From assembly GCF_017302275.1 (NCBI RefSeq), contig NZ_JAFLDR010000002.1:62001-126000 (forward strand): a stretch of DNA of 64,000 nt, read 5' to 3'. The position numbers were made by a program, and so were the translations under genes. The notes below the pieces were generated by a model. The model ran no database searches. It had not been told where the DNA came from and saw only the letters and a list, made by a program, of their open reading frames with translations. Shown here in pieces: positions 3,547 through 49,767 of this stretch (its first letter is position 1; the number at the start of each line of letters is the position of its first letter). The DNA is from Sulfuritalea sp. Its GTDB lineage: Bacteria; Pseudomonadota; Gammaproteobacteria; Burkholderiales; Rhodocyclaceae.

Positions 3547-5082
3547 ATGAAAACATCCTCGCGCCTCGGGCTCTACGCGCTGATTCTTGCCGCCGTCGCC
3601 GCAGGTGGCTTGTGGGCGTGGCGGTCCGGCAGCAACGGCGCCGATACCGCAAAATACAAGCTGGCCAAGGTTGAAACCGGACCACTTGCAGCGGTGGTCT
3701 CCGCCACCGGCACCTTGAACCCCGTCGTCTCGGTCCAGGTCGGGTCGCAGGTTTCCGGGCAAATCAAGGAAATCTTGGTGGACTTCAACTCGCCGGTCAA
3801 GTCCGGCCAGCTGATCGCACGCCTCGATCCGGAAACCTATCAGCATCGGGTGCGCCAGGCCGAAGCCGACGTCGATGCCGCGCGTGCCGCGCAGGGCGTG
3901 CAACAAGCCGAAGTGGCACGTGCCCGCGCCAACCTGTCGAACGCCCAGCGCGATTACGAACGCAAGAAGACCCTGGTGGAGAAGAACTTCATCTCACCGG
4001 CCGAACGCGATACGGCGCAGAACACGCTTGATGCCGCGCGCGCCTCGCTCGCATCGGCCGAGGCGCAGGTAAGGAATGGCGAAGCCATCGTGCGGCAGCG
4101 CGAAGCCCAACTGGCGGCGGCGCACGTGGACCTGACGCGCACCTCGATCACGGCCCCGGTCGACGGCGTCGTCGTGAAACGCAGCATCGAGCCCGGTCAG
4201 ACAGTGGCGGCAAGCCTGCAGGCGCCGGAACTGTTCGTCATCGCCAAGAGCCTGACCGACATGCAGGTGGAAACCTCGATCGACGAAGCCGACGTCGGCC
4301 GCGTCCGCCTCGGGCAGAAGGCCACGTTCACCGTGGACGCCTTCGCCGGTCGCCATTTCGAAGGCGAAGTGCGCCAGGTGCGCAAGGCGGCCACCGTGGT
4401 CTCCAACGTCGTCACCTATACCGTGGTCATCTCCGCGGCGAATCCCGACCTCACGCTGCTGCCGGGCATGACGGCCAACGTGCGCATCATCACGGCACGG
4501 AAGGACAAGGTGCTCAAGGTTCCCAATGCGGCGTTGCGTTACCGCCCCGCAGGCTCCACCGATGAAAAGAAGCCCTCGACAGCGACGCCGGCTGCCGTAG
4601 TACCAGCGCCGACTTCCGGCGGCGGCGGGACCGCACAGATCAGGGAGCGCCTGGTCGCGGAACTCAGACTCGATGCCGAGCAGCAGGGCAAGCTCGATGC
4701 GATCTTCGCCGGCATGCGCGACAAGTTCATGGCCGCGCGCGACCTGCCCGAGGCAGAGAAATCCAAGGCCCAGGAACGCAACCGCGCCGAGATCCGTGAA
4801 AAGGTGGCGGCCATGCTGACCCCGGAACAAAAACTGCGCTATGACGAGCTCGGCACGCAGGCCGCCGCCGCCCGGTCCGGAGCAGGCGGCGGCTCCGGTC
4901 GCCTGTGGATCGTGGGCGGGGATGGCAAACCGCAGGCGGTCGAACTGCGCCTCGGCCTCACCGACGGCAGCATGACCGAGATAGTTTCCGGCGACCTCAA
5001 GGAAGCGCAGGAAGTCATCACCGGCCAGCAAGCTGCCGCGGCGCCGAAGGCTGCCGGCATGCCTGCTCCGCGACTGTTTTAG
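3547..5082 (+). CDS. MacA-like periplasmic adaptor with Spy/CpxP-like insertion
   Basis: This is a membrane-fusion (HlyD/MacA) subunit of a MacAB-type tripartite exporter. An N-terminal membrane anchor (residues 7-24) is followed by a biotinyl-lipoyl segment (VGSQVSGQIKEILVDFNSPV), an alpha-helical hairpin (about 95-190) and beta-barrel segments. At 511 residues it is well above the roughly 370-400 of MacA. The excess is mostly a helix-rich stretch at about 355-435 with LTPEQ at 424-428, resembling the LTxxQ motif of Spy/CpxP chaperones, placed between the barrel and the final membrane-proximal segment (GRLWIVGGDGKP). It is followed by its ATPase after ten bases. The substrate cannot be told from sequence. 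Confidence 0.85.
   Translation: MKTSSRLGLYALILAAVAAGGLWAWRSGSNGADTAKYKLAKVETGPLAAVVSATGTLNPVVSVQVGSQVSGQIKEILVDFNSPVKSGQLIARLDPETYQHRVRQAEADVDAARAAQGVQQAEVARARANLSNAQRDYERKKTLVEKNFISPAERDTAQNTLDAARASLASAEAQVRNGEAIVRQREAQLAAAHVDLTRTSITAPVDGVVVKRSIEPGQTVAASLQAPELFVIAKSLTDMQVETSIDEADVGRVRLGQKATFTVDAFAGRHFEGEVRQVRKAATVVSNVVTYTVVISAANPDLTLLPGMTANVRIITARKDKVLKVPNAALRYRPAGSTDEKKPSTATPAAVVPAPTSGGGGTAQIRERLVAELRLDAEQQGKLDAIFAGMRDKFMAARDLPEAEKSKAQERNRAEIREKVAAMLTPEQKLRYDELGTQAAAARSGAGGGSGRLWIVGGDGKPQAVELRLGLTDGSMTEIVSGDLKEAQEVITGQQAAAAPKAAGMPAPRLF
4593..4616 (-). repeat. 24-bp dispersed repeat, copy in the macA-like gene
   Basis: Reverse-orientation, somewhat diverged copy (GAAGTCGGCGCTGG then ACTACGGCA on the minus strand). 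It falls in the linker before the Spy-like insertion and is read as VPAPTS. Confidence 0.6.
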
Positions 5083-5092
5083 AGTCATCGCG

Positions 5093-5806
5093 GTGAGCGA
5101 GCCACTGATCCGGGTCGTCGATCTGGCCAAGGATTACGTCATGGGCAGCAACGTGGTGCCTGCGCTACGCGGTGTCACGCTCGACATCGCGGCCGGCGAG
5201 TTCGTCGCCGTGATGGGGCCGTCGGGCTCCGGCAAATCGACCTTCATGAACCTGCTCGGCTGCCTCGACCATCCCAGCGCCGGCCGCTACTCGCTCGACG
5301 GCCAGGAAGTTTCGGCGCTTTCCGGCGACGAACTCGCCGCGGTCCGAAATCGAAAGCTGGGCTTCGTCTTCCAGCACTTCAACCTGCTCGCGCGCACCAC
5401 CGCACTGGACAACGTCGCGCTGCCGCTGCTTTACGGCAAACTGCCGCCCGCCGAACGCGACCAACGAGCAACGCGCCGCCTCACCCAGATCGGCCTCGCC
5501 GATCGCATGGACCATCATCCCGCCCAGCTTTCCGGCGGCCAGCAACAGCGCGTCGCGATCGCCCGCGCACTGGTGAACGATCCGCAACTGGTACTCGCCG
5601 ACGAGCCGACCGGCGCGCTCGATTCGCGCACCAGCGAGGAGATCATGGCCCTGCTGCAGGAGCTGAACCACGACGGAATCACCATCGTGCTGGTCACCCA
5701 TGAGCACGACATTGCGGATTTCGCCGGACGCATCATTTCCTTCCGCGACGGCAAGGTGATCGAGGACCGGGCCAACGCGGCCAAGGTCGCGGCGGCCGCG
5801 CCATGA
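5093..5806 (+). CDS. MacB-type ABC transporter ATPase
   Basis: Cytoplasmic ATPase of the LolD/MacB family, 237 residues, that powers the exporter with the adjacent adaptor and permease. Walker A GPSGSGKST, the Q-loop FQHFNLL, the signature LSGGQQQR and Walker B LVLADEPTGALD are all present, with the switch histidine in LVTHE. The start is GTG at 5093, ten bases after the adaptor stop. The stop overlaps the permease start by ATGA. In E. coli MacB ATPase and permease are one chain; here they are separate. Confidence 0.93.
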   Translation: MSEPLIRVVDLAKDYVMGSNVVPALRGVTLDIAAGEFVAVMGPSGSGKSTFMNLLGCLDHPSAGRYSLDGQEVSALSGDELAAVRNRKLGFVFQHFNLLARTTALDNVALPLLYGKLPPAERDQRATRRLTQIGLADRMDHHPAQLSGGQQQRVAIARALVNDPQLVLADEPTGALDSRTSEEIMALLQELNHDGITIVLVTHEHDIADFAGRIISFRDGKVIEDRANAAKVAAAAP

Positions 5807-7038
5807 ACTTCACCGCCACCCTGCGCATCGCCCTGCTCGCCCTGCGCATCAACAAGCTGCGCTCGGCGCTCACCATGCTCGGCATCATCATCGGCGTCGC
5901 CGCCGTCATCATAATGATCGCAGTCGGCAACGGCGCCCAGGCCCGCGTCGAAGACCAGATCAGGAGCCTCGGCTCGAACATCATCATGGTGCTGTCCGGC
6001 TCGACCACCTCGGGTGGCGCACGTGGCGGCACCGGCTCACTGCCGACCATCACCGAGGACGACGCCTACGCGCTGAACCGCGAAATCGATGAAATCCACG
6101 CCGCCGCGCCGACCCTGCGCGGCTCCGGGCAGGCCGTGGCCGGCAATGCCAATTGGTCGACCACTTTCTACGGCACCACGGCCGAATACCTGGAAGTGCG
6201 CGAATGGGCGGTGATCGAGGGGCGCGGCTTTGAGGTCGCGGAAGTGAGCGGCGCCGGCAAGGTCGTCCTGATCGGCCAGACCGTTGCCAAGAACCTCTTC
6301 GGCGACACCAGCCCGATCGACCAGGTGATCCGCGTGCGCAAGGTGCCGCTGACCATCGTCGGCGTGCTCGACCGCAAGGGACAGAACATGATGGGCCAGG
6401 ATCAGGATGACATCATCCTGATGCCGATCAGCACGGCCAGAAAGCGCGTGCTCGGCTCGACCCAGCAGGCCAAGAGCCGCAACGTCGGATCGATCATGGT
6501 CAAGATCAAGGACGGCGCCGACATGGCGGCTGCCGACGCCCGCATGCGCGAACTGTTGCGCCAGCGCCATCGCCTGCAGAGCGGCCAGGACGATGACTTC
6601 TTCGTGCGCAACCTGTCCGAGATCCTGCAGGCCCAGGAGGCTTCTTCGAAAGTCATGTCGCTGCTGCTGGCGGCCGTTGCCTCGGTTTCGCTGCTGGTGG
6701 GCGGCATCGGCATCATGAACATCATGCTGGTCTCGGTCACCGAACGCACGCGCGAAATCGGCCTGCGCATGGCCGTCGGCGCCCGTGGCCGCGACATCCT
6801 GACCCAGTTCCTGGTCGAAGCGGTCACGCTGTCCCTGATCGGCGGCGCCATCGGCATCATGCTCGGCATTGGCGGCGCGACGGCGATCGCCGAATTCGCC
6901 GGCTGGCGCACCGAACTCTCCGGCGACTCGATCGTGCTCGCCGCTGGCTTCGCCGGCGCGATCGGCATATTCTTCGGCTTCTATCCGGCGCGCAAGGCCG
7001 CGCATCTTCTGCCCATCGAGGCGCTGCGCTACGAATAG
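5803..7038 (+). CDS. MacB-type ABC transporter permease
   Basis: 411-residue inner-membrane permease with MacB topology: one N-terminal transmembrane helix ending in the LGIIIGVAAVIIM segment, a large periplasmic core domain (about 45-270), then three FtsX-type helices at the C-terminus, with the conserved ERTREIGLRMAVGAR coupling segment. Translation is coupled to the ATPase through an ATGA overlap. With the two preceding genes it forms a three-gene export operon; an outer-membrane partner is not in the window. Confidence 0.92.
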   Translation: MNFTATLRIALLALRINKLRSALTMLGIIIGVAAVIIMIAVGNGAQARVEDQIRSLGSNIIMVLSGSTTSGGARGGTGSLPTITEDDAYALNREIDEIHAAAPTLRGSGQAVAGNANWSTTFYGTTAEYLEVREWAVIEGRGFEVAEVSGAGKVVLIGQTVAKNLFGDTSPIDQVIRVRKVPLTIVGVLDRKGQNMMGQDQDDIILMPISTARKRVLGSTQQAKSRNVGSIMVKIKDGADMAAADARMRELLRQRHRLQSGQDDDFFVRNLSEILQAQEASSKVMSLLLAAVASVSLLVGGIGIMNIMLVSVTERTREIGLRMAVGARGRDILTQFLVEAVTLSLIGGAIGIMLGIGGATAIAEFAGWRTELSGDSIVLAAGFAGAIGIFFGFYPARKAAHLLPIEALRYE

Positions 7039-7058: not shown

Positions 7059-7103
7059 CTGGATTTACAATGCCGTTGTCGTCACCGCTAACCTTGAACC
7101 CCC

Positions 7104-8661: not shown

Positions 8662-9123
8662 ATGGACTTGATACTCTGGCGTCACGCCGAGGCGGAGGAT
8701 GGCGGCAGCATCCTCGCCGATCACCAACGGCGCCTGACGCAACGCGGCGAAAAGCAGGCAAGGCAGCTCGCGCGCTGGTTGCAACCCCATTTGCCGCGCA
8801 AGCTGACTATCCTCGCCAGCCCCACCGAACGCACGCGGCAAACCGCGCACGCGCTGGGACTGACCTACGAAATCGAACCAAAAGTCGGCGCTGGCGCGAC
8901 GGCGACGGCGGTGCTGGCAGCGGCCGGCTGGCCCGCCCGGGACGGCGCCGTGCTGGTGGTCGGCCATCAGCCTACCCTGGGTCGCGTTGCCGCCCTGCTG
9001 CTGTCCGGCCAGGAAGACGACTGGGCGGTCAAGAAGGGAGGCGTCTGGTGGTTTGCCGGGCGGGACCGGGGTGGGCGCGTGGAGACCGTGCTGCGGGCCG
9101 TGCGCAATCCGGATTTCGCCTGA
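8662..9123 (+). CDS. sixA: SixA-type phosphohistidine phosphatase
   Basis: 153-residue histidine phosphatase superfamily protein. The catalytic RHAEA motif is at residues 7-11 and the second histidine is in VVGHQPTLG. The short length and LILWRHAEA start fit SixA, which dephosphorylates phosphohistidine on HPt domains or PTS proteins. The ATG is preceded by AAGGA. Its place directly behind a CHAD protein suggests a functional link through phosphohistidine or polyphosphate, which is inference. Confidence 0.85.
   Translation: MDLILWRHAEAEDGGSILADHQRRLTQRGEKQARQLARWLQPHLPRKLTILASPTERTRQTAHALGLTYEIEPKVGAGATATAVLAAAGWPARDGAVLVVGHQPTLGRVAALLLSGQEDDWAVKKGGVWWFAGRDRGGRVETVLRAVRNPDFA
8881..8904 (+). 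repeat. 24-bp dispersed repeat, copy inside sixA
   Basis: Matches the consensus exactly (AAAGTCGGCGCTGGCG, CG, ACGGCG). It is read in frame as KVGAGATA in the middle of SixA. Confidence 0.75.
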
Positions 9124-11521: not shown

Positions 11522-13066
11522 TTGAACGACAACGACAGCAGCATCACGCCCGCCATTCCCGTCGACACCGCCGTATCGCCGGCGCCGACCTCCGAACCTC
11601 CCCGAGTCAGCTTCGACGATCTCGGCCTGCTGCCGGAATTGCTGCGCGCCGTGAAGGACGCGGGCTACACGCACCCGACGCCGATCCAGGCCCAGGCCAT
11701 CCCCATCATCATGTCCGGCAAGGACGTCATGGGCGGCGCCCAGACCGGCACCGGCAAGACCGCCGGATTCACCCTGCCGCTGCTCCAGCGCCTGGCAAGG
11801 TACGCTACTTCTTCTCCTTCGCCGGCGCGCCATCCGGTGCGCGCCCTGATTCTGGCGCCGACGCGCGAACTGGCGATGCAGGTGCATGAAAGCGTCGTCA
11901 CCTACAGCAAGCATGTACCGCTGCGCTCGGTCTGCATCTACGGCGGCGTGGATATCAAACCGCAGATCGCGCAATTGCGCGAAGGGCGCGAGATCGTCGT
12001 CGCCACCCCGGGCCGCCTGCTCGACCACGTCGAACAGAAAAGCGTCTCCTTCGCTTCGGTCGAGGTGCTCGTGCTCGACGAGGCCGACCGCATGCTGGAC
12101 ATGGGCTTCATCCCCGACATCAAGCGCATCCTCGCCATGCTGCCCAAGGAACGCCAGAGCCTGCTGTTCTCGGCCACCTTCTCCAACGAGATCAAGAACC
12201 TTGCCGACAGCATGCTGAAGGCGCCGCAACTGATCGAGGTTGCGCGCCGCAATGCCGTTTCCGAGACCATCACCCATCGCGTCTACCCGGTCGCCTCCGA
12301 CTTGAAGCGCAGCCTGCTGGTGCACCTCCTGACCCATGACGAAGAGAAGGCCAAACAGGTGCTGGTCTTCGTCGGCACCAAGTTCGGTGCCAGCCGGCTG
12401 GCGGTCTATCTCGAACGCCAGGGCATCGCCGCCGACGCCATCCACGGCGACAAGAGCCAGCAGCAACGGACCGAAGCGCTGGAAGGTTTCAAGTCCGGCA
12501 GGATCCGCGTGCTGGTCGCCACCGACGTCGCCGCGCGCGGCCTTGACATCGACGACCTGCCCCACGTCATCAACTACGAACTGCCGCACACCGCCGAGGA
12601 CTACGTGCACCGCATCGGCCGCACCGGCCGCGCCGGCAAGCATGGCGACGCCACCTCGCTGTTCTCTCCGGAGGAAAAGCAGCGGCTGGCCGACATCGAA
12701 AAGCTGATCAAGCGCCAGATCGAGCGCGTCGAGATCAGCGGCTTCGCCGAGCTGGCCTCCTCGCCGCCCGAGCGTGCGCCGAGCAATCGCGGCCACAAAC
12801 GCGAACACCTCGAGCGCGCCCGCGAGAAGGCCCGCGAGCGCGACCGCGCGCTGACGCTGGACGGCGTCAAGCCGGCCGGACGCGAGCTGCCCAGCCCCGC
12901 CGCCCACGTGCCGCGGCTCGACCCGCGCCTGCCCAAGCTCGACTTCGATCCGACCAAGCCCTACGTCAGCAAATCCGCCGCCGGTGCAGTGGCCGCGGAA
13001 AAGCCGATTCCCACCCGCCCGCAGCGCCCCGTGGCGGCCCTGCTCGGCGGCTTTGGCAGGAAATAG
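11522..13066 (+). CDS. rhlE: DEAD-box RNA helicase, RhlE type
   Basis: 514 residues from a TTG start at 11522, chosen because CAGGAG lies six bases upstream and the Q-motif domain begins soon after. Visible motifs: Q-motif (YTHPTPIQ at 49-56), motif I AQTGTGKT (73-80), motif Ia PTRELA, motif II DEAD (186-189), motif III SAT, motif V ATDVAARGLDI and motif VI HRIGRTGRAG. The C-terminal tail is basic and low in complexity, as in RhlE. Such enzymes act in ribosome assembly and RNA decay. An insertion, RYATSSPSPARHP, lies between motifs I and Ia. Confidence 0.92.
   Translation: MNDNDSSITPAIPVDTAVSPAPTSEPPRVSFDDLGLLPELLRAVKDAGYTHPTPIQAQAIPIIMSGKDVMGGAQTGTGKTAGFTLPLLQRLARYATSSPSPARHPVRALILAPTRELAMQVHESVVTYSKHVPLRSVCIYGGVDIKPQIAQLREGREIVVATPGRLLDHVEQKSVSFASVEVLVLDEADRMLDMGFIPDIKRILAMLPKERQSLLFSATFSNEIKNLADSMLKAPQLIEVARRNAVSETITHRVYPVASDLKRSLLVHLLTHDEEKAKQVLVFVGTKFGASRLAVYLERQGIAADAIHGDKSQQQRTEALEGFKSGRIRVLVATDVAARGLDIDDLPHVINYELPHTAEDYVHRIGRTGRAGKHGDATSLFSPEEKQRLADIEKLIKRQIERVEISGFAELASSPPERAPSNRGHKREHLERAREKARERDRALTLDGVKPAGRELPSPAAHVPRLDPRLPKLDFDPTKPYVSKSAAGAVAAEKPIPTRPQRPVAALLGGFGRK
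11569..11592 (-). repeat. 24-bp dispersed repeat, copy in the rhlE 5' end
   Basis: Reverse-orientation copy (GAGGTCGGCGCCGGCG, AT, ACGGCG on the minus strand), read on the plus strand as TAVSPAPTS in the disordered N-terminus of the helicase. Confidence 0.65.
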
Positions 13067-17222: not shown

Positions 17223-17246
17223 CGCCAGCGACCCCGAGCGCCACCC

Positions 17247-17445: not shown

Positions 17446-17449
17446 TCCA

Positions 17450-17473
17450 AGAGTCGGCGCTGGCGCCACGGCG
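17450..17473 (+). repeat. 24-bp dispersed repeat upstream of the FGGY kinase
   Basis: Forward copy (AGAGTCGGCGCTGGCG, CC, ACGGCG), five bases after the structured repeat and 33 bases before the kinase ATG. Confidence 0.75.
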
Positions 17474-24935: not shown

Positions 24936-25430
24936 TCAGACCGTCTGCGGCACCAGCTTCTCGATCCGCTGGTCGGCGCAGCGCGCAAGCAGTTCGTGCA
25001 CCGTACCGCGCCCCGGAATGACGAGCTCGGGCGCAATCTCGGCCAGCGGCGCGAGCACGAAAGCACGCTCATGGAGCCGTGGATGCGGCAGCGTCAGTCG
25101 CGGATCGTCCGATGCCTCGTCGCCGAACAGCAACAGGTCGAGATCCAGCGTGCGCGGCGCGTCCTTCACGCTGCGGCTGCGGCCGAAGCGCGCCTCGATG
25201 TCGAACAAGTCGTCCAGAAGAGTCGGCGCCGGCGACACGGCGTCAACCGCCACCACGGCGTTGATGAAGTCGGGCTGGTGCCTGAGGCCGACCGGCGCGG
25301 TGCGATACAGCGACGACGCGGCGACAAAACGCGCACCGGGCAACTGGCGCAGGACAATGATGGCGGCATTGACCGTCGCCACCGCGTCCCCGAGATTGGC
25401 GCCCAGCGCGATGAAGCAGGTCCGGCCCAC
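24936..25430 (-). CDS. folK: 2-amino-4-hydroxy-6-hydroxymethyldihydropteridine pyrophosphokinase
   Basis: 164 residues. FolK transfers pyrophosphate in folate synthesis. The motifs are FIALGANLGD at the start, the metal-binding DLDLLLFG (TLDLDLLLF) and LPHPRLHERAFVLAPLAEIAP. It is packed with pcnB upstream (one base between), the common pcnB-folK pairing. The 24-bp dispersed repeat lies inside it and is read as AVSPAPTL. Confidence 0.95.
   Translation of the reverse strand: MGRTCFIALGANLGDAVATVNAAIIVLRQLPGARFVAASSLYRTAPVGLRHQPDFINAVVAVDAVSPAPTLLDDLFDIEARFGRSRSVKDAPRTLDLDLLLFGDEASDDPRLTLPHPRLHERAFVLAPLAEIAPELVIPGRGTVHELLARCADQRIEKLVPQTV
25219..25242 (+). repeat. 24-bp dispersed repeat, copy inside folK
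   Basis: Plus-strand copy (AGAGTCGGCGCCGGCG, AC, ACGGCG) within the minus-strand folK gene, in a loop region between the strands that flank FINAVVAVD and LLDDLFDIE. Confidence 0.7.
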
Positions 25431-26936: not shown

Positions 26937-29789
26937 ATGGAACTCGCCAAGAGCTTCGAACCCGCCGACATCGAGCGGCGCTGGTACCCGATCTGGGAGT
27001 CGCGCGGCTATTTCGCCGCCGGACTCGACACCGCCAGGAGCGACAATTTCTGCATCCTGCTGCCGCCGCCGAACGTCACCGGCACGCTGCACATGGGCCA
27101 CGGCTTCAACCAGGCGATCATGGATTCCCTTACCCGCTACCACCGCATGCGCGGCGACAACACGCTGTGGCAGCCGGGCACCGACCACGCCGGCATCGCG
27201 ACGCAGATCGTCGTCGAACGCCAGCTTGACGCCCAGGGCCAGTCGCGCCACGACCTCGGACGCGAGAAATTCCTCGAAAAAGTCTGGGAATGGAAGAAAT
27301 ACTCCGGCGACACCATCACGCGCCAGATGCGCCGACTGGGAACCTCACCCGACTGGTCGCGCGAACGATTCACGATGGACGCGGGCCTGTCGAAGATCGT
27401 CACCGAAACCTTCGTTCGCCTTTACAACGAAGGCCTGATTTACCGCGGCAAGCGCCTGGTGAACTGGGACCCGAAGCTGCTCACCGCCGTGTCCGACCTC
27501 GAAGTGGTCAGCGAGGAGGAAGACGGCTCGATGTGGGAGATCCACTACCCGTTCGCCTGCGGCAAGGGTTCGCTGACGGTGGCGACGACCCGCCCGGAAA
27601 CCATGCTCGGCGACGTCGCGGTGGCCATCAATCCCGACGACGACCGCTACAAACACCTGATCGGCAAGCAGGTTCAGTTGCCGCTGTGTGACCGCACGAT
27701 CCCGGTCATCGCCGACAGCTACGTGGACCCGGAATTCGGCACCGGCTGCGTCAAGATCACGCCGGCGCACGACTTCAACGACTGGCAGGTCGGCCATCGC
27801 CACGGCCTCGCGCCGATCAGCGTGCTGACCCTGGACGCACGCATCAACCAACACGGCCCTGAAAAGTATCGCGGCATGGACCGCTACGAAGCGCGCCGTG
27901 CGATCGTCGCCGACCTTGAAGCGGCCGGCCTGCTGGCCAGCGTGAAACCGCACAAGCTGATGGTGCCGCGCGGCGACCGTACCGGCGCGGTGATCGAGCC
28001 GATGCTCACCGACCAGTGGTTCGTCGCCATGAGCAAGCCTGGCGCCGATGGCAGCAGCATCGCCGGCAAGGCGCTGGAATGCGTGGCCTCAGGCGAAATC
28101 CGCTTCGTGCCGGAGAACTGGGTCAACACCTACAACCAGTGGCTCAACAACATCCAGGACTGGTGCATCTCGCGCCAGCTCTGGTGGGGCCACCAGATCC
28201 CGGCCTGGTATTCGGACGACGGGCGCTTCTACGTCGCCCACGACGAAGCCGAGGCCTACGCCCAGGCCAGGCGCGATGGTTACACGGGTGGCCTCGAACG
28301 CGATCCGGACGTGCTCGACACCTGGTATTCGTCGGCGCTATGGCCCTTCTCGACACTGGACTGGACGCCCGAGTGGCCCGCCAAGTCGAATACCGCGCTG
28401 GACCTCTACCTGCCCTCGACGGTGCTGGTCACCGGTTTCGACATCATCTTCTTCTGGGTGGCGCGCATGGTGATGATGACGAAGCACATCACCGGCAAGA
28501 TCCCGTTCAAGGATGTCTACGTGCACGGCCTGATCCGCGACGCGGAAGGCCAGAAGATGAGCAAATCCAAGGGCAACGTGCTCGATCCGATCGACCTGAT
28601 CGACGGCATCACGCTCGACGAACTGGTCAAGAAGCGCACCACGGGCCTGATGAATCCGAAGGATGCGGCCAAGATCGAAAAGCGGACACGCCGCGAGTAT
28701 CCGGATGGCATTCCCGGCTTCGGCACCGACGCGCTGCGCTTCACCTTCCTTTCGCTGGCCTCGCCGGGGCGCGACATCAAGTTCGACATGCAGCGCTGCG
28801 AGGGCTATCGCAATTTCTGCAACAAGCTGTGGAATGCCTCGCGCTTCGTTCTGATGAATTGCGAGGGTCAGGACTGCGGCCTCGCCGAACATGGCTCCGA
28901 CGCCTGCACCGGCAGCTACCTCGACTTTTCACCGGCCGACCGCTGGATCGTCAGCCGCCTGCAGAAGGTCGAGCAGGAAGTCGCGCAGCACTTCGCCGAC
29001 TACCGCTTCGACCTGCTGGCGCGCGCCATCTACGAATTCGTCTGGGACGAGTATTGCGACTGGTACCTGGAACTGGCCAAGGTGCAGATCCAGACCGGTG
29101 GCGAAGCCCGCCAGCGCGCCACGCGCCGCACGCTGGTGCGCGTGCTGGAGACCTTGCTGCGCCTGGCGCATCCGCTGATCCCCTTCATCACCGAGGAACT
29201 CTGGCAGACGGTAGCCCCGCTGGCCGGTCGCGCCGACGCTGCCGACGAGTCGCGTTCGCTGATGCGGCAGCCCTACCCGAAGGCCGACCTGTCGCGCTGC
29301 GATACCGCGGCCGAAGCCTGGGTGGCGCGACTCAAGGACATGATCAACGCCTGCCGCAGCCTGCGCGGCGAGATGAACATTTCCCCAGCGCAGAAGGTGC
29401 CGTTGATCGGCGCCTGCGACGCCCCGAAGGAAGCCCCCTTGGGGGGTACGGCGATCCTGAACGCGTATGCGCCCTACCTCGCCGCACTGGCCAGGCTGTC
29501 CGCCGTGACGGCAGCGGAATCGCTGCCGGATTCCGACGCACCGGTGCAGATCGTCGGCGAGTTCCGCCTGATGCTGAAGATCGAGGTCGACGTGGCGGCG
29601 GAGCGGGAGCGGATGGGCAAGGAAATCCTGCGCATCGAAGGCGAAATCGGCAAGGCCGAAAAGAAACTGGCCACCGAAAGTTTCGTCGCCCGCGCTCCGG
29701 CCGCCGTGGTGGCGCAGGAGCGGGAACGCCTCGCCGGCTTCCGGGCTACTCTGGCTAAACTCGTGGCGCAGAGGCAGCGCCTGGGCTGA
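26937..29789 (+). CDS. valS: Valyl-tRNA synthetase
   Basis: 950 residues, full length. The class Ia signatures are HMGHG at 52-56 (HIGH) and KMSKS at 540-544. The editing domain ([15 protein letters not shown]) and anticodon-binding domain precede a C-terminal coiled coil ([22 protein letters not shown]) typical of ValRS. A TAAAAT hexamer about 30 bases upstream could be a -10 element. A short insert ([13 protein letters not shown]) near residue 830 looks like low-complexity sequence. Confidence 0.97.
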
Positions 29790-31062: not shown

Positions 31063-31086
31063 AAAGTCGGCGCCGGCGGGACGGCG
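31063..31086 (+). repeat. 24-bp dispersed repeat, intergenic
   Basis: Copy AAAGTCGGCGCCGGCG, GG, ACGGCG in the 183-base gap between the periplasmic-protein gene and the SQR-like gene. Nothing else is recognisable in that gap apart from C/G-rich sequence. Confidence 0.75.
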
Positions 31087-34425: not shown

Positions 34426-34449
34426 AAAGTCGGCGCTGGCAATACGGCG
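34426..34449 (+). repeat. 24-bp dispersed repeat between tusA and dsrE2
   Basis: Copy AAAGTCGGCGCTGGCA, AT, ACGGCG in the 243-base gap downstream of tusA. Nothing coding is seen in this gap; its other element is the A/T-rich motif. Confidence 0.75.
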
Positions 34450-35807: not shown

Positions 35808-35813
35808 GTTGGC

Positions 35814-36022: not shown

Positions 36023-36056
36023 GTGATGCTCGGTGTCATAAGCGTTAGGAGCCCGC

Positions 36057-42470: not shown

Positions 42471-42546
42471 TAACCACGGTTCGCGGGCTGCGCCCGCTCC
42501 ATTTCATTGACTCGCTGCCTCCTTGGGGCGGCCCGGCGGAGGCAGC

Positions 42547-44808
42547 ATGAACGCACCCACCACACCCGTGACACCCAAGTACGCCGCCTATATCTGCTCC
42601 GGCTGCGGCATCGGCGATGCCATGAAGGTCGGGCAGCTCGAGAACATCGCCAAGAAGGAAGGCAAGATGGCGCTGGTCAAGAGCCATCCCTTCCTGTGCA
42701 ATGCCGAAGGCGTGCAGACTATCCGCGACGACATCGCCAACGAACAGGTGACCCACGTCTGCATCGCGGCCTGTTCGCGCCGCGCCAAGACCGAGGCCTT
42801 CCAGTTCGACGGTGTCGCCATGTCCCGCGCCAACCTGCGCGAAGGCGTGCTGTGGGTCGTCGCCGCCGGCAAGGAGCACGACGAGGTGCGCCAGGAAATG
42901 GCGGCCGACTACGTGCGCATGGGCTGCGCCGAAATCAAGAAGATGAAGCAGCCGGCCGGCAATGCCAAGGAAAGCTCCTCGAAGCGCATCCTCGTCGTCG
43001 GTGGCGGCATGAGCGGCATGACTGCGGCGCTGGAAATCGCCGAAGCCGGCTACGAGGCCGTGATCGTCGAAAAGACCGGCGCTCTGGGCGGCATGGCCGC
43101 CAAACTGTGGAAGCGCCAGCCGTTCAAGATGCCCTACTCGGCCGCGCAGGAAGTCGGCGTTGGCGAGACGGCGGCGAAGATTGCCGGAAACCCGCTGATC
43201 AAGGTCCATCTGAATTCGACGATTGCCGAGACCTCCGGCGCACCGGGCCGCTTCACGATCAAGGTCGCGCAAGAGTCAGGCGCTGTCACCGAAGAAACCG
43301 CTGGTGCCATCGTCCAGGCCACCGGCTTCACCACCTACGACATGGCCAAGCTGCCGGAACTCGGCGGCGGCCAGCCCAACGTGGTGGACCAGGGCGGACT
43401 CGAAGCCCTGGCGCAGGCTGCCAACGGCGGCGCGATCAAGCGCGCCGACGGCAAGGACATCAAGTCGGTGGTCTTCGTCCAGTGCGCCGGCCAGCGCGAC
43501 ACGACCGGCCAGCACCTGTCCTATTGCTCCGGTCACTGCTGCGGCACCAGCATCAAGCAGGCGACCTATTTCAAGGACCAGAACCCCGACATCGACACCG
43601 TGGTCATGTACCAGGACTTGCGCGTGCCGGGCATGGGCGAAGATTTCTACCGCGGCGCACAGGAGCGCGGCGTGATCTTTACCAAGGGCAAGGCGAGCAA
43701 GGTCACCGGCGGCGACAGTTGCGCCGTGACCTTCAAGGACCTGATCCTCGACGAAGAGAACACCATCGCCGCCGATCTGGTGGTGCTGGCCACCGGCCAG
43801 GTGCCGAACGCCGGCGTCGATCTCGAAGCCTGGAACCCGGTAGTCACCGCCGCCGAGGGCGGCGACGAAGCGGCCAAGGCCCAACGCATCGTGATGCATG
43901 ACAGTTCGGTGCTCAAGCTGAACTACCGCCAGGGTCCGGACGTGCCGCAGTTCAAGCACGGCTTCGCCGACTCGCATTTCATCTGCTTCCCCTACGAGAC
44001 GCGCCGCACCGGCATCTATGCCGCCGGCCCGGTGCGCCGACCGATGGACATGCTGCAGGCCACCGACGACGCCACCGGCGCCGCGATGAAGGCCATCCAG
44101 GCGGTCGAGAATGCCGCCATAGGCCGCGCCGCGCATCCGCGCTCGGGTGACCTGTCCTTCCCCACCGCGCGCCTCGAAGGCTGCACCCAGTGCAAGCGCT
44201 GCACGGTCGAATGCCCCTTCGGCGCCATCGACGAGGACGAGAAGCGCTTCCCCAAGTTCAACGAGGAACGCTGCCGCCGCTGCGGCACCTGCATGGGCGC
44301 CTGCCCGGTGCGCGTGATCTCCTTCGAGAACTACTCGGTCGACACCGTCGGCAGCCAGGTCAAGGCGGTCGAGATCCCCGAGGAGGACGAGGAGAAGCCG
44401 CGCATCCTGGTGCTGGCCTGCGAGAACGACGCCTACCCGGCGCTCGACATGGCGGGCATGGCGCGCATGAACTACTCGGCCTGGGTGCGCGTCATCCCGG
44501 TGCGCTGCCTCGGCTCGGTGAACACCATCTGGATCACCGACGCGCTGAACTCCGGCTACGACGGCGTGATGATGATGGGCTGCAAGAAGGGCGACGAATA
44601 CCAGTGCCACTTCGTCAAGGGATCCGAACTCGCCCACTACCGCATGAGCAAGATCGGCGACACGCTGAAGCAGATGGGCCTTGAGCCCGAGCGCGTGGCC
44701 ACCCAGGAAGTGGCGATCACCGATAACGCCCGCGTGGTCAAGCTGATCAACGACTACGTCGCCGAACTCGACAAGCTCGGCCCCTCGCCCATGAAGGGCT
44801 TCGGCTGA
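42547..44808 (+). CDS. qmoB: QmoB, HdrA-like flavoprotein with ferredoxin and MvhD domains
   Basis: 753 residues from an ATG with GGAGG upstream. Domain order: an N-terminal HdrA-type segment (YICSGCGIGDAMKVGQLE), FAD-binding core (ILVVGGGMSGMTAALEIAEAG), a two-cluster ferredoxin (CTQCKRCTVECPFGA and CRRCGTCMGACPVRV), then a C-terminal MvhD/FlpD-like domain (ILVLACENDAYPALDMAG to MMMGCKKGDEYQCHFVKG). This is the QmoB architecture. It pairs with QmoA in electron transfer between AprAB and downstream carriers. Confidence 0.93.
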   Translation: MNAPTTPVTPKYAAYICSGCGIGDAMKVGQLENIAKKEGKMALVKSHPFLCNAEGVQTIRDDIANEQVTHVCIAACSRRAKTEAFQFDGVAMSRANLREGVLWVVAAGKEHDEVRQEMAADYVRMGCAEIKKMKQPAGNAKESSSKRILVVGGGMSGMTAALEIAEAGYEAVIVEKTGALGGMAAKLWKRQPFKMPYSAAQEVGVGETAAKIAGNPLIKVHLNSTIAETSGAPGRFTIKVAQESGAVTEETAGAIVQATGFTTYDMAKLPELGGGQPNVVDQGGLEALAQAANGGAIKRADGKDIKSVVFVQCAGQRDTTGQHLSYCSGHCCGTSIKQATYFKDQNPDIDTVVMYQDLRVPGMGEDFYRGAQERGVIFTKGKASKVTGGDSCAVTFKDLILDEENTIAADLVVLATGQVPNAGVDLEAWNPVVTAAEGGDEAAKAQRIVMHDSSVLKLNYRQGPDVPQFKHGFADSHFICFPYETRRTGIYAAGPVRRPMDMLQATDDATGAAMKAIQAVENAAIGRAAHPRSGDLSFPTARLEGCTQCKRCTVECPFGAIDEDEKRFPKFNEERCRRCGTCMGACPVRVISFENYSVDTVGSQVKAVEIPEEDEEKPRILVLACENDAYPALDMAGMARMNYSAWVRVIPVRCLGSVNTIWITDALNSGYDGVMMMGCKKGDEYQCHFVKGSELAHYRMSKIGDTLKQMGLEPERVATQEVAITDNARVVKLINDYVAELDKLGPSPMKGFG
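43150..43173 (+). repeat. 24-bp dispersed repeat, copy inside qmoB
   Basis: Forward copy with one central change (GAAGTCGGCGTTGGCG, AG, ACGGCG), read as EVGVGETA in the FAD domain. It may be a diverged copy or chance similarity in a conserved protein segment. Confidence 0.5.
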
Positions 44809-46371: not shown

Positions 46372-46382
46372 GAAAGGCTCAA

Positions 46383-46406
46383 AGAGTCGGCGCTGACGCT
46401 ACGGCG
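46383..46406 (+). repeat. 24-bp dispersed repeat downstream of hdrB
   Basis: Copy AGAGTCGGCGCTGACG, CT, ACGGCG, 12 bases after the hdrB stop. Confidence 0.7.
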
Positions 46407-46499
46407 GTTCCCTGCCAGAGTGTCTTCGTCGACGTATGCTTTGAAGCGGGGTCCCGTCATTGTTGCAAGACGTCACCCGCGCGCTTAGACTTCCCCAGC

Positions 46500-47249
46500 A
46501 TGTACCTTACCGCCGCTGAAAGCCGCTCGCTTTCCCGCCTCTTCAGCCTGCTCGCCGAAGACATGGCGGAACGCGAAGTGCGTGAGCGTGTGGGTTGCAG
46601 CCTGCTCGACATGTTGCGCGCCGACTACTTCGCATCCTACGTTTGGGATGATTCGACGAGGCGATTCGGCAACCGCGTGTCGATCAACATGAGCCACGAC
46701 ACGCTCGGCACCTACGAGGCGTACTACCAGTTCCGCGACCCGATCACATACCGGCTGCAGGCGCGCCGGGTGCCGACACTGGTCACCCAGATCATGCCGC
46801 AGCGGGAATTGATGCGCACCGAGTTCTTCAACGATTTCCTCGCCCGCGACGGCCTGCATTGGGGCGTCAATGCCTACAGCTACGCGGATGGACTCAACAT
46901 CGGCGATCTGCGCATCTGGCGCGGGCGGACCCGCGAAAACTTCGACGGACACGCACTCGAACTCCTGCGGCTGATCCAGCCAGCGTTTACCGGCGCGTTG
47001 CAGCGCGTGAGGCTGCGCACCCGAGCCGCATGCAATCCGGTGGGCATGCCGTCGGATGCCCTGTCGCCGCGGGAACTTGAGGTCGCGCGCATGATCAGTC
47101 GGGGGCTGACTGACAAGGAGATTGCGCGCTATCTATCGGTCGAATTGTCCACCGTGCGCACCTATCTGAAACGGACGTTCGTCAAACTCGGCGTGCGCCG
47201 CCGCGGAGAACTCGCGGCGGCGATCGGCCGCTTGCAGCGGATCGATTGA
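46500..47249 (+). CDS. LuxR-family transcriptional regulator
   Basis: 249 residues. The N-terminal ~180 residues form a GAF-like sensory region (MLRADYFASYVWDDSTRRF, YYQFRDPITYRL). The C-terminal LuxR helix-turn-helix is SPRELEVARMISRGLTDKEIARYLSVELSTVRTYLKRTFVKLGV. No receiver domain, so it probably senses a ligand directly. It lies 128 bases after hdrB and could control the sulfur genes or itself. The amidase gene converges on it with a two-base gap. Confidence 0.85.
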   Translation: MYLTAAESRSLSRLFSLLAEDMAEREVRERVGCSLLDMLRADYFASYVWDDSTRRFGNRVSINMSHDTLGTYEAYYQFRDPITYRLQARRVPTLVTQIMPQRELMRTEFFNDFLARDGLHWGVNAYSYADGLNIGDLRIWRGRTRENFDGHALELLRLIQPAFTGALQRVRLRTRAACNPVGMPSDALSPRELEVARMISRGLTDKEIARYLSVELSTVRTYLKRTFVKLGVRRRGELAAAIGRLQRID

Positions 47250-47251
47250 CC

Positions 47252-48787
47252 TCAGTTTTTCGGCGGCGCCGGCAGGCGCCCGAAAACCTGCTCCAGCGCC
47301 AGCCCGATGGCAATCAGCCGCCGGTCGCTGCCGGCCGGACCATCGAGCTCAAGCCCGACCGGAAGTCGGCTGCTGGCGCCCAAGGTCACGGGAATCTGAA
47401 GCCCCGGAATCCCCGCGTTGCTGCCCGGATCGGTGTTCTGGATATACAGGCCAAAGTTCGCCAGGCTGCTTGATTCCGGGTTGGATGCGATCGCCACCTT
47501 CGGCACGGTGGGAAACACGATCGCATCGAGCTTGTGGTCGGCAAAGGTTTTCCGGTACAGGCTTTGCAGTGCCGGCCGGCTCTGTTTCATCGCCGCATCG
47601 TAGGCGGGCCTGGCGTCGACCAGCGTGTTGTTCGGGCCGGGCAGCTTGCGCGGAATCACCAGTCCGTCATAAGTGCCCTTCACGTCCGGACTGGAAATGC
47701 CCTTCGCCAGATCGGCGATCGTGACACCGGAACCGCTCTTCTTCAGGTAGGCGACCATGTCGTCATGCGCCTCGTAGAGCGCCAACGGAAAACCCACCGC
47801 CCCGTTGAGTTCGCCCAGCTTCGGCATCTCGACATCGACTACCGTGACGCCGGCGGCCTTCATTTTCGCGACCGCCATCTCCATCGCCGCCTTGGTATCG
47901 GCATCCAGATTGGCCTGATTCGCCGCCACCACGCCGACGCGAATTTTCTTCAAGTCCGCGGCCGGAATGGCCTTGGACGCCTTGCCGCCGGCGATCACGC
48001 GATCCAGCAGTTCGACGTCGGCCATTGACGAGGCCATCGGCCCCGGCGTGTCGCGTGTATGCGATATCGGCGCGATGCCGCCCTGCGGATAGCGGCCACC
48101 GGTGGGCCGCAACGACGCGCAGCCGTTGAGGGCGCACGGAATCCGCACCGAGCCGCCGGTGTCGGTGCCGAGTCCGGCGGCGACGATGCGCGCACCGATC
48201 GCGGCGCCGCTACCGGACGAGGATCCGCCGGCAATCCGGGAACGGTCCCAGGCATTGCGCACGCCGAACTCGGCACCGGTCTTGAATGCTGTGTTGTAAC
48301 CCGATACACCGAACGCAAGCTCGTGCATGTTGGTCTTGCCGATGATGATCGCCCCGGCCCGGCGCAACTTCGCGGTGACCGGCGCGTCGGCCTTCGGCAC
48401 GAAATCCTTAAGCGCGGGCGTGCCCGCGGTGCTGGGCAGCCCGGCCACCTCGATGTTGTCCTTGACCACCACCGGCACCCCGCCGAGCGGCTTGCAGGCC
48501 GCGCCGCCCTTGCGCGCCTTGTCCGCCGCCCGTGCCGCCTTCAGCGCGCCTGCCTCGTCGAGGGTGATGAAGGCGTTCAGGTGTGCGTGCGCTTTTGCCC
48601 GCTCGAGCGCAGCCGAGACCAGGGCCTCGCTGGTGTATTTGCCCGCGCACAGATCGGTAGCGGCCTGGCCCGCGGTCAGCGTGTTCATGTCAGGAACCCC
48701 TTGCGCGCCAGCAGACGCAGAAAGGGCAATGCACGCCGTGGCCGCCAGAATGTTTGCCGCCAGCGGCGACTTGCAGAATCGGTACAT
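47252..48787 (-). CDS. Exported amidase (amidase signature family)
   Basis: 511 residues. A signal peptide (LAANILAATACIALSASAGAQG) precedes the amidase-signature domain. The Ser-cisSer-Lys triad is visible: Lys in VVVKDNIEVAG and the Ser-rich loop RIAGGSSSGSGAAIGA with GLGTDTGGSVRIPC. The enzyme hydrolyses an amide bond; substrate unknown. Export to the periplasm is less common in this family. The ribosome site is CAGGAGG. It is not evidently linked to the sulfur genes. Confidence 0.88.
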   Translation of the reverse strand: MYRFCKSPLAANILAATACIALSASAGAQGVPDMNTLTAGQAATDLCAGKYTSEALVSAALERAKAHAHLNAFITLDEAGALKAARAADKARKGGAACKPLGGVPVVVKDNIEVAGLPSTAGTPALKDFVPKADAPVTAKLRRAGAIIIGKTNMHELAFGVSGYNTAFKTGAEFGVRNAWDRSRIAGGSSSGSGAAIGARIVAAGLGTDTGGSVRIPCALNGCASLRPTGGRYPQGGIAPISHTRDTPGPMASSMADVELLDRVIAGGKASKAIPAADLKKIRVGVVAANQANLDADTKAAMEMAVAKMKAAGVTVVDVEMPKLGELNGAVGFPLALYEAHDDMVAYLKKSGSGVTIADLAKGISSPDVKGTYDGLVIPRKLPGPNNTLVDARPAYDAAMKQSRPALQSLYRKTFADHKLDAIVFPTVPKVAIASNPESSSLANFGLYIQNTDPGSNAGIPGLQIPVTLGASSRLPVGLELDGPAGSDRRLIAIGLALEQVFGRLPAPPKN

Positions 48788-48943
48788 GTTTACGTCCTCC
48801 TGTGGTTGAAATGCGAATCCGGTATTGGCTCCGGATACCCACAGGATTCTGGGCCGCTCACGGACATCTGTCTGTCCCCATTTTCGGGGACGGCATGCGG
48901 CCGAGGACATCCGACTGATCTGGGCCGAAACGCCGGAAGACGT

Positions 48944-48967
48944 CGCCGTGTCGCGGGCGCCGACGGT
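48944..48967 (-). repeat. 24-bp dispersed repeat, diverged copy
   Basis: Minus strand reads GTCGGCGCCCGCG, AC, ACGGCG. It lies in the 277-base gap between the amidase start and the toxin-antitoxin genes. Confidence 0.45.
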
Positions 48968-49027
48968 TGCGGTACGCGTGCGAACGCATAACTCGCGGAT
49001 CCCCGTCGCGGGTACTCGCGGCGATGA

Positions 49028-49047
49028 TTACAATGCATGCATTGCAA
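49028..49047. promoter_or_regulatory. Palindromic operator of the fitAB-like operon
   Basis: CAATGCATGCATTG at 49031-49044 is a perfect 14-bp palindrome, imperfectly extended to 20 bp, 18 bases before the antitoxin start. FitA/VapB-type antitoxins bind such inverted repeats to repress their own operon. Confidence 0.65.
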
Positions 49048-49064
49048 CCACCCAAGAGAACGCC

Positions 49065-49310
49065 ATGGCCAGCCTGACCATCCGCAATTTCGACGACGAA
49101 CTCAAGGCGCGCTTGCGCCTGCAGGCGGCGCAACACGGCTGGTCGATGGAGCAGGAAGCACGCGAAATTCTGCGTCGGGCGGTTCTGGTCCCCTCGTCAG
49201 GCCCCGGTTTCGCCCAGACGATTCACCGGCGTTTCGCCGCCCTGGACGTACAGGAGCTGCCCATCACGCAGCGCCGCGCCGCACGCTTGCCCGCGACACC
49301 CAAGGACTGA
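49065..49310 (+). CDS. FitA/VapB-like ribbon-helix-helix antitoxin
   Basis: 81 residues. The N-terminus MASLTIRNFDDELKARLRLQAAQHGWSMEQEAREILRRAV is a classic FitA-type ribbon-helix-helix DNA-binding domain; the C-terminal half would wrap around the toxin. The toxin gene starts two bases after the stop codon. It should neutralise the PIN toxin and autoregulate at the palindrome just upstream. Confidence 0.92.
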   Translation: MASLTIRNFDDELKARLRLQAAQHGWSMEQEAREILRRAVLVPSSGPGFAQTIHRRFAALDVQELPITQRRAARLPATPKD

Positions 49311-49312
49311 GC

Positions 49313-49738
49313 ATGGCGGGCATCCGGCTCGATACCAACGTCCTTTCCGAACTGATGCGGGCACAACCCGCCCCGCAAATGCTGGACTGGTTTGCTCGAC
49401 AGCAGGGTGCATCGTTCTTCGTTTGTGCCATCACCCGCGCCGAAATACTGCTCGGGATTGCGCTGCTTCCCGCCGGCAAGCGCCGCGACAGGCTCGCGGC
49501 GGCCGCAGAGCAGATGTTTGCCGAGGACTTCGCCGGACGCTGCCTGCCATTCGACGATGCCTGCGCAACGGAATACGCCGTCTGCGTGGCTGCCCGAACT
49601 CATCAAGGGCGGGCGATTTCGACCGAGGATGCCCAGATCGCTTCAGTGGCAGTCGTTCATGGCCTGTCGCTGGCAACCCGGAACGATAAGGACTTCAAGG
49701 GAATCCACGGGCTGACCGTACTCAACCCCTGGGCGTGA
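49313..49738 (+). CDS. FitB/VapC-like PIN-domain toxin
   Basis: 141 residues. PIN-domain ribonuclease: RLDTNVLSELMR (first catalytic Asp), ITRAEILLGI (Glu), then ISTEDAQIASVAVVHGLSLATRNDKDF (remaining acidic residues). The order and length match FitB. With the antitoxin it forms a type II toxin-antitoxin pair placed between the hdr and apr sulfur blocks. Confidence 0.93.
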   Translation: MAGIRLDTNVLSELMRAQPAPQMLDWFARQQGASFFVCAITRAEILLGIALLPAGKRRDRLAAAAEQMFAEDFAGRCLPFDDACATEYAVCVAARTHQGRAISTEDAQIASVAVVHGLSLATRNDKDFKGIHGLTVLNPWA

Positions 49739-49743
49739 TTTCT

Positions 49744-49767
49744 CGCCGTGGCGCCTGCGCCGACTTT
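49744..49767 (-). repeat. 24-bp dispersed repeat after the toxin gene
   Basis: Minus-strand copy AAAGTCGGCGCAGGCG, CC, ACGGCG, starting six bases past the toxin stop and abutting the end of the converging YkgJ-type gene. Confidence 0.75.

What the first reader, a model, noticed from the sequence alone, without database searches (positions are those of the whole stretch)
4593..49767. A 24-bp dispersed repeat occurs at least 13 times, in intergenic and in coding DNA
Consensus AAAGTCGGCGCTGGCG, two variable bases, ACGGCG. Copies I located: 4593(-), 7035, 8881, 11569(-), 17450, 25219, 31063, 34426, 36910(-), 43150, 46383, 48944(-), 49744(-). Those at 8881 and 36910 match fully although they lie in sixA and soeA. 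In genes it is read in two ways: KVGAGxTA (SixA, SoeA, weaker in QmoB) or AVSPAPTx (RhlE, FolK, MacA-like). Its core GGCGC-TG-GCGCC is palindromic. Such density of a long near-identical word is not explained by codon bias. It may be a recruited protein or DNA motif (chromosome organisation, uptake, or a mobile short repeat tolerated in frame).
Basis: seen in the sequence. Interest (0 to 1): 0.75.

Follow-up and report, generated by a model that had tools for sequence, protein, structure and literature searches.

The report
Possible DNA uptake word with dialects
A group of environmental bacteria related to Sulfuritalea carries the same roughly 27-letter DNA word hundreds of times per genome, inside and between genes and in lineage-specific spellings, much like the words by which two other bacterial families recognise their own DNA when they take it up; if that is its role, this would be a third such family.

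Summary
All 13 reported copies are there, plus one at 50199; 12 have up to 3 mismatches, where shuffles give none. The genome has 304 exact copies and 747 with up to 2 mismatches (reversed word 0 and 3). Codon-preserving shuffles average 0.05 exact copies in genes against 53 observed. Consensus: RARAGTCGGCGCYGGCGRYACGGCGAY, about 27 bp. It is abundant in Sulfuritalea, Rugosibacter and some other Rhodocyclales and nearly absent in the other genomes searched. Other lineages spell it differently (AAAAGTCGACGCTGG..., AAAGTCAGCCGTGGCG...). In FolK it is a substitution in place, not an insertion. It shows no significant replication polarity or ori-ter trend, is fivefold denser between genes, and sometimes forms co-varying terminator-like hairpins. 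These resemble the uptake sequences of Neisseriaceae and Pasteurellaceae, the only two families named for this in two papers (PMC5031613, PMC7811141; passages). I propose a third, longer, independent uptake-sequence system (about 0.6). Uptake is not shown, two candidate receptor families do not track the word, and synonymous conservation appears at FolK but not ValS. Main rival: the site of an unknown chromosome-binding protein.

The parts
4593..4616 (-). copy, 4 mismatches, in the HlyD/MacA-like gene 3547-5082(+)
   Evidence: PF16576/PF13437
7035..7058 (+). copy, 2 mismatches, overlapping the TAG stop of ORF 5803-7038
8881..8904 (+). exact copy in a sixA-like gene 8662-9123, read KVGAGATA
   Evidence: SixA model TIGR00249 matched below its cut-off (59.8 of 74.5 bits)
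11569..11592 (-). copy, 3 mismatches, read TAVSPAPT just upstream of the helicase domain of an RhlE-like ORF
   Evidence: RhlE models matched below their cut-offs
17450..17473 (+). intergenic copy, 1 mismatch, upstream of ORF 17506-19071
25219..25242 (+). copy, 2 mismatches, in folK (24936-25430 -), read AVSPAPT; the site carries the word (up to 3 mismatches) in 27 of the 32 closest named loci
   Evidence: TIGR01498 over its cut-off
29405..29453 (+). broken copy in valS: GATCGGCGCCTGCGA and TACGGCG separated by about 27 nt of inserted sequence; the word (up to 3 mismatches) is at this site in 23 of 26 relatives' loci that cover it
   Evidence: ValS models over their cut-offs
31063..31086 (+). 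intergenic copy, 1 mismatch
34426..34449 (+). intergenic copy, 1 mismatch
43150..43173 (+). copy, 2 mismatches, in the HdrA/QmoB-like gene 42523-44808, read EVGVGETA
   Evidence: HdrA models below cut-off
46383..46406 (+). intergenic copy, 2 mismatches; left member of an inverted pair that is a compact hairpin in five relatives and is split here by about 3.3 kb
48944..48967 (-). weak copy, 4 mismatches, within the 3.3-kb insert, upstream of the amidase gene
   Evidence: PF01425
49744..49767 (-). intergenic copy, 1 mismatch; right member of the split inverted pair

Best explanation
The word is most likely a DNA uptake sequence: a mark of 'self' DNA for natural transformation. Proposed mechanism: (1) a cell-surface DNA receptor of the type IV pilus uptake machine prefers DNA carrying the word; (2) such DNA is taken up and recombined into the chromosome; (3) alleles with the word are therefore over-transmitted, so the word accumulates and is repaired wherever it is tolerated, in intergenic DNA and in permissive codons, in either orientation; (4) when the receptor's preference drifts, the genome drifts to a new spelling (dialect); (5) inverted pairs are co-opted as terminator hairpins. 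Shown here: abundance, in-place occurrence (FolK), placement in and between genes, no significant polarity, dialects, maintained hairpins at one locus. Inferred: steps 1-3 (receptor, uptake, drive), the cause of the dialects, and termination.
For: Sharp class of near-identical copies: 87, 54, 18, 12 with 0-3 mismatches, then background 38 and 203 with 4 and 5 (864 kb). Codon-preserving shuffles (20): mean 0.05 against 53 exact, 8.2 against 100 with up to 2 mismatches. FolK: no indel against homologues, 2qx0 included; its word codons are the least synonymously variable of 156 eight-codon windows, variation sits at the free or degenerate bases, and all 27 Thr codons are ACT. Strand use about equal (75 of 146 leading; 31 of 76 in another subset, p 0.14) and no ori-ter trend (p 0.37) (ori and ter placed from GC skew). 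56 of 159 copies intergenic in about 10% of the DNA; convergent gaps 1.85 times expected. Inverted terminator-like pairs with both-sided changes in 6 of 24 stem pairs. Lineage dialects. A copy inside or within 150 bp for 11.6 of 100 genes in the lowest GC3 quartile against 23.5-27.7 in the others. Fewer further copies in word-bearing viral stretches, about 49 against 166 per Mb. DUS dialects and paired terminators, rarity of DUS in acquired genes, and evolution of USS by point mutation are described in PMC3630211, PMC2397512 and PMC7811141 (passages).
Against: No uptake or transformation experiment. No paper of the held library has both 'Rhodocyclaceae' and 'DNA uptake sequence', or 'Sulfuritalea' and 'uptake sequence'; the one with 'Rhodocyclales' and 'natural competence' is about Bacillus vectors (listing). 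At the valS site synonymous conservation is not unusual: 0.301 in the word against 0.329 elsewhere, rank 360 of 931 windows. The word is much longer than DUS (12 nt) or core USS (9 nt) (PMC5031613, passage), and its density (about 150-205 per Mb in matched dialects) is far below the 1014 per Mb given for H. influenzae (PMC7811141, passage). Only 2 close inverted pairs in the 40 G002 stretches. Copies per 20 kb are Poisson-like (mean 3.65, variance 3.98). Two minor-pilin families do not separate genomes with and without the word, ComEC is in 38 of 38, and the dialect genome G114 = G888 gave no match to either pilin family. The low-GC3 effect may partly reflect that a GC-rich word arises less easily in AT-rich genes, and by codon score copies inside genes show no trend.
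Confidence: 0.6

Rival explanations
1. The word is the binding site of an unknown intracellular DNA-binding protein that organises, repairs or segregates the chromosome, with protein and sites co-evolving (dialects).
For: Spread over the chromosome in both orientations, a long high-information site with blocks AGTCGGCG-CYGGCG-nn-ACGGCG, lineage dialects, no tested uptake-receptor family that tracks it.
Against: No significant polarity or ori-ter distribution as expected (recalled) of KOPS, Chi, matS or SlmA/Noc sites; hairpin pairs, fewer copies near low-GC3 genes and enrichment in convergent gaps fit an uptake word somewhat better. That a chromosomal reader would not need so many conserved bases is an inference.
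Confidence: 0.25
2. A short mobile or selfish repeat (REP/BIME, MITE-like, or Rickettsia-palindromic-element-like) that inserts into genes in frame.
For: Dispersed, occurs in coding DNA; some copies occur as inverted pairs, and one locus carries different cargo between or beside pair members in several species. In four loci of another clade (L039, L052, L056, L063) the FolK segment with the word is 3 residues longer.
Against: In FolK of the 27 closest word-bearing loci the word stands without a length change, also against 2qx0; PF01797 has no match in 9 of 24 word-rich genomes, two of them in 1-3 contigs at 100% completeness.
Confidence: 0.07
3. A by-product of composition, codon preference or a conserved peptide motif.
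For: Two reading frames dominate (70 of 100 coding copies) and the word is GC-rich like the genome.
Against: Reversed-word controls 0-6 per genome in 249 genomes; codon-preserving shuffle 0.05 against 53; 56 of 159 copies are wholly non-coding; FolK of word-free relatives lacks the peptide.
Confidence: 0.01

Closest known systems
DNA uptake sequences (DUS) of Neisseriaceae
   Same: Many copies in intergenic DNA and permissive coding sites, lineage dialects with a shared core, inverted pairs at terminators (PMC3630211, PMC2397512, passages read).
   Different: No obvious sequence similarity; about 27 bp instead of 10-12; hundreds of copies per genome, where passages of PMC3630211 give 2,245-5,918 for several species; few inverted pairs; another order (Rhodocyclales); receptor and uptake not shown.
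Uptake signal sequences (USS) of Pasteurellaceae
   Same: Motif with a core and a longer flank, evolution in place by point mutation, dialects (PMC7811141, PMC12616744, passages read). A start like AAAGT is shared, probably by chance.
   Different: Different core, GC-rich second half, lower density, unrelated host lineage; no uptake data.
REP elements with RAYT transposases
   Same: Dispersed short repeats, sometimes paired as inverted hairpins.
   Different: The single word is not palindromic, 100 of 159 copies lie wholly in coding DNA, and PF01797 has no match in 9 of 24 word-rich genomes. REP properties recalled.
KOPS, Chi, matS and other chromosome-choreography motifs
   Same: Spread over the chromosome; may vary between lineages.
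   Different: Much longer, and no significant replication polarity or ori-ter trend. Motif properties recalled, not looked up.

Membership tests
DNA uptake sequence (DUS/USS-type) | Very high copy number of a conserved word in the genome | tested here: met
   304 exact and 747 with up to 2 mismatches against 0 and 3 reversed; density lower than in the classical systems
DNA uptake sequence (DUS/USS-type) | In intergenic DNA and permissive coding sites, both orientations, evolving in place | tested here: met
   in-place evolution tested fully at FolK only; synonymous conservation at FolK but not ValS
DNA uptake sequence (DUS/USS-type) | Lineage dialects | tested here: met
DNA uptake sequence (DUS/USS-type) | Inverted pairs at terminators in high number | tested here: inconclusive
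   co-varying hairpin pairs at one locus, but only 2 close inverted pairs in the 40 G002 stretches; termination not tested
DNA uptake sequence (DUS/USS-type) | Rarer in recently acquired DNA | tested here: inconclusive
   scarcer near low-GC3 genes and in word-bearing viral stretches; acquisition dates unknown, composition confounds, and codon-score quartiles show no trend for copies inside genes
DNA uptake sequence (DUS/USS-type) | Cognate pilus receptor (ComP or analogue) | tested here: inconclusive
   PF16732 in 52 of 54 and PF12019 in 37 of 39 genomes, with and without the word; G114 = G888 without a match to either; other minor pilins not tested
DNA uptake sequence (DUS/USS-type) | Word increases DNA uptake or transformation | not testable with these tools
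   needs an uptake assay
REP/RAYT repeats | Cognate Y1 transposase in genomes with the repeat | tested here: not met
   no match in 9 of 24 word-rich genomes
KOPS/Chi/matS-type motifs | Replichore polarity or ori-ter localisation | tested here: not met
   75 of 146 on the leading strand (p 0.80); 31 of 76 in a second subset (p 0.14); KS p 0.37 for ori distance
In-frame inserted elements (RPE-like) | Copy is an insertion relative to orthologues | tested here: not met
   FolK aligned without a gap; other genes not tested in the same way

The most novel reading that the evidence does not exclude
A third, independently evolved family of DNA-uptake words, in environmental Rhodocyclales (Sulfuritalea, Rugosibacter and kin), with a recognition element of about 27 bp, at least four dialects and a receptor still to be found. 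Sequence-restricted bacterial sex would then not be confined to the two families, mainly of mucosal habitats, in which it is described.
Probability: 0.55. Interest if true: 0.9.

Novelty: new variant of a known kind. Interest (0 to 1): 0.82.

Why it matters
Two papers consulted place uptake sequences in two families only, Pasteurellaceae and Neisseriaceae (PMC5031613, PMC7811141; passages read), the latter with a discussion of mucosal habitats. A third origin in environmental bacteria would make the open question of why such words evolve testable by comparison. The dialects give a natural series for finding the receptor by co-evolution, and the word gives a genomic marker of who exchanges DNA with whom, including stray copies in other families. 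If it is not an uptake word, a conserved chromosome-wide code of about 27 bp with an unknown reader is equally unexplained.

Tried and rejected
Palindrome: only in copies whose variable bases are CC; not a property of the word. RNA family: no Rfam match in the window at gathering score. Codon or composition artefact: rejected. Mobile insertion: rejected for FolK. ValS: the first synonymous test used the window's interrupted copy (0.363 against 0.329); repeated with the intact L004 copy as reference it shows no unusual conservation (0.301 against 0.329, rank 360 of 931). SixA: a low-confidence alignment to 4hbz shows no extra residues at the word. REP/RAYT: rejected. Replication polarity and ori-ter localisation: not found. 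An apparent gap at 0.72-1.17 Mb of G002 in the 76-copy subset was not real: stretches sampled there hold copies. Receptor hunt by PF16732 and PF12019: not discriminating. Another over-represented word in word-poor genomes: none comparable in samples of G136 (140 kb) and G309 (78 kb), a REP-like word in G034 (140 kb), none comparable in G907 (140 kb), G900 (102 kb), G924 (82 kb). The tree counted L050 as word-free; it later proved to have a dialect, so its 4 changes may be an overcount. Dialect densities (187 and 205 per Mb) were counted with looser, lineage-fitted patterns and are not strictly comparable with 170 per Mb in G000. Gene calls are from a simple caller of my own, not a standard annotator.

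Full report
Observation. In the whole genome (G000, 4,409,354 bases, 88 contigs; the window is C12:62001-126000) there are 304 exact copies of AGTCGGCGNNGGCGNNACGGCG, 151 forward and 153 reverse, and none of the reversed word; with up to two mismatches 747 against 3.

Anatomy. From the window plus 40 stretches of 20 kb of G002, a relative with a single 3.80-Mb contig (864 kb in all), copies fall into a sharp class: 87, 54, 18, 12 with 0, 1, 2, 3 mismatches, then a background of 38 and 203 with 4 and 5. The 159 copies with up to two mismatches give RARAGTCGGCGCYGGCGRYACGGCGAY; information fades before -2 and after about +24, so the element is about 27 bp with two loosely constrained bases inside. 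100 copies are wholly coding, 56 intergenic, 3 partial, although 90% of the DNA is called coding, which makes intergenic DNA about fivefold denser; convergent gaps have 1.85 times the expected share. Two close inverted pairs (5 and 6 bp apart) occur in the G002 stretches.

Not codon bias. Permuting synonymous codons over 812 coding sequences (778 kb) 20 times gives on average 0.05, 1.2 and 8.2 copies with 0, up to 1 and up to 2 mismatches; observed are 53, 86 and 100.

In place. The folK site carries the word (up to 3 mismatches) in 27 of the 32 closest named loci with no length change in these 27, while FolK of the word-free genomes printed has other residues there, in most over the same length; the best PDB match, 2qx0, also aligns without a gap. 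In four loci of another word-bearing clade the segment is 3 residues longer, L023 has a longer form, and in L042 and L046 the site lacks the word although those genomes hold 523 and 448 copies. Among 156 eight-codon windows of folK the one over the word has the lowest synonymous variation (0.25; mean of other codons 0.42); the variation left lies mainly at the free or degenerate bases, and all 27 Thr codons at the site are ACT. A second site, in valS, holds the word in 23 of 26 loci that cover it, but its synonymous variation is ordinary (0.301 against 0.329, rank 360 of 931). So DNA-level constraint is seen at one of the two sites tested. In the window the valS copy is interrupted by about 27 nt.

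Distribution. All 31 genomes of the genus examined have exact copies, 8 to 395. In 249 genomes of the family, 31 have at least 30 copies with up to two mismatches (g1 9 of 9, g8 1 of 1, g19 7 of 8, g78 1 of 1, g86 4 of 4, g104 7 of 7, g85 1 of 1, g23 1 of 2); the other 218 have 24 or fewer; reversed control 0-6. Outside the family: at most 5 copies in 242 genomes of the order (19 of 242 with any; one mismatch allowed) and at most 2 in the 368 other genomes of the class sample (18 of 368 with any). Of 50 named genomes 27 have at least 30: Sulfuritalea and Rugosibacter labels, one Sulfurisoma-labelled MAG, UBA2250-like and other MAGs; those labelled Azonexus, Dechloromonas, Zoogloea, Thauera, Niveibacterium and Sterolibacterium have 0-6. 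In a PcnB tree of 51 rows (those 50 plus the window) the 28 carriers lie in one 33-row clade (99/94), with 4 label changes; one 'non-carrier', L050, later proved to have a dialect.

Dialects. Genus g19 ends in ...GGGACGGCA and g8 prefers GG at the free positions (30 and 22 copies). De novo word counting in samples of two genomes poor in the standard word found related words: AAAAGTCGACGCTGGnGnnACGG in G888 (34 copies in 182 kb with the fitted pattern; the 12-mer AGTCGACGCTGG 23 times against 0.10 expected) and AAAGTCAGcCGnGGCGnnACGCCG in G910 (39 in 191 kb; AAAGTCAGCCGT 10 times against 0.01). The same counting found no comparable word in samples of G136, G309, G900, G907 and G924, and a REP-like word in G034 (78-140 kb each).

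Hairpins and a variable locus. Between an HdrB-like gene (models matched below cut-off) and a CxxCxxCC-domain gene, five relatives (G001, G002, G005, G008, G011) have an inverted pair of the word with a short loop; G004 has two such hairpins around about 1.2 kb; G030 has one hairpin followed by other sequence; in the window the two members (46383+, 49744-) flank about 3.3 kb with LuxR-like, amidase and VapC-like genes; G007, G010, G013, G017 and G021 carry inserts of 0.7-1.3 kb without the word between the genes, and G018 has an unrelated terminator-like hairpin. Nine aligned hairpins from eight genomes show changes on both sides in 6 of 24 stem pairs (12 cells; shuffle means 2.7 and 4.4), and three folded examples have z-scores of -9.5 to -11.2. 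Both arms are copies of the word, so most pairing is inherent; the coupled changes at the free bases and at off-consensus bases are what suggests that the hairpin is kept. DUS pairs at terminators are described in PMC3630211 (passages). The swapping of cargo resembles what I recall as minimal mobile elements of Neisseria (recalled, not looked up).

Function. In G002, with ori and ter placed from GC skew, there is no significant replichore polarity (75 of 146 leading, p 0.80; 31 of 76 in the AC subset, p 0.14) and no ori-ter trend (KS p 0.37, 76 copies); counts per 20 kb are Poisson-like. Of 687 genes, 11.6 per 100 in the lowest GC3 quartile have a copy inside or within 150 bp, against 23.5-27.7 in the others (p 2e-4); by codon score the same measure rises from 17.4 to 27.9, but copies inside genes per kb show no trend. 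Composition may explain part of this, the word being GC-rich. Stray copies in other families and in word-free genera, fetched in 8 stretches, lie in several cases near what look like defence, efflux or integrated-element genes (named by eye). The pattern as a whole resembles published properties of DUS: dialects, paired terminators, permissive core locations, absence in recently acquired genes (PMC3630211, PMC2397512; passages), and evolution of USS by point mutation (PMC7811141, passage). A frame bias of uptake words is stated in the abstract of PMC2346458.

Limits. The uptake reading rests on analogy. ComEC is present in 38 of 38 genomes tested, with or without the word. The ComP-type pilin family is in 52 of 54 and GspH/FimT-type in 37 of 39, so neither tracks the word; the dialect genome G114, identical in places to G888, has no match to either. 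PMC12616744 (passages) proposes another minor pilin, PpdA/ComN, as the USS receptor; I did not test it. The word is longer and sparser than known uptake words. Library searches: no paper with 'Sulfuritalea' and 'uptake sequence', none with 'Rhodocyclaceae' and 'DNA uptake sequence', none with all three terms; broader searches were seen only as listings, some capped, with no evident report of this word; PMC13020248 (passages) reports uptake words in terminators of the two known families. The library holds open-licence papers only. I therefore give 0.6 to an uptake sequence and 0.25 to an unknown chromosomal reader.

Noticed in passing
window 46407-49743: A 3.3-kb segment (LuxR-like regulator, amidase, VapC-like toxin; the first and last matched NCBIfam models below cut-off) sits between the two inverted word copies; in five relatives the flanking genes are joined by the compact hairpin, and other species carry other inserts at this place.
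   Followed up: partly
window 29405-29453 (valS): A word copy intact in relatives is interrupted in frame by about 27 nt of CCCC/GGGG-rich inserted sequence; locus L022 shows a very similar insert.
   Followed up: partly
window 16208-16303, 17211-17375, 23404-23620, 35800-36056: A second dispersed repeat family, roughly 100-250 bp, in both orientations, with the hairpin-like GGTGGGCTTTGCACAGCCCACC and GAAGCCTCCCCGCGAGGGGGCG.
   Followed up: no
window 50668-50700: A word of about 32 bp built of GATCAG-like units upstream of ORF 49770-50666(-), with 89-100% matches elsewhere in G001, G008 and G011.
   Followed up: no
G309, G900, G907, G924 (samples L325-L330, L359-L378): Genomes in or next to word-bearing lineages without the word or a detectable substitute in the samples: useful as contrasts for a receptor hunt.
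   Followed up: partly
L331-L338 (G094, G831, G071, G717, G446, G540, G047): Isolated copies, mostly exact, in other families and in a word-free genus; four genomes have two within about 4-8 kb, several near accessory-looking genes: possible footprints of transfer from word-bearing bacteria.
   Followed up: partly
L311-L317 (G034): A different over-represented word, TGTGGGAGCGGC..., which looks like a REP element.
   Followed up: no
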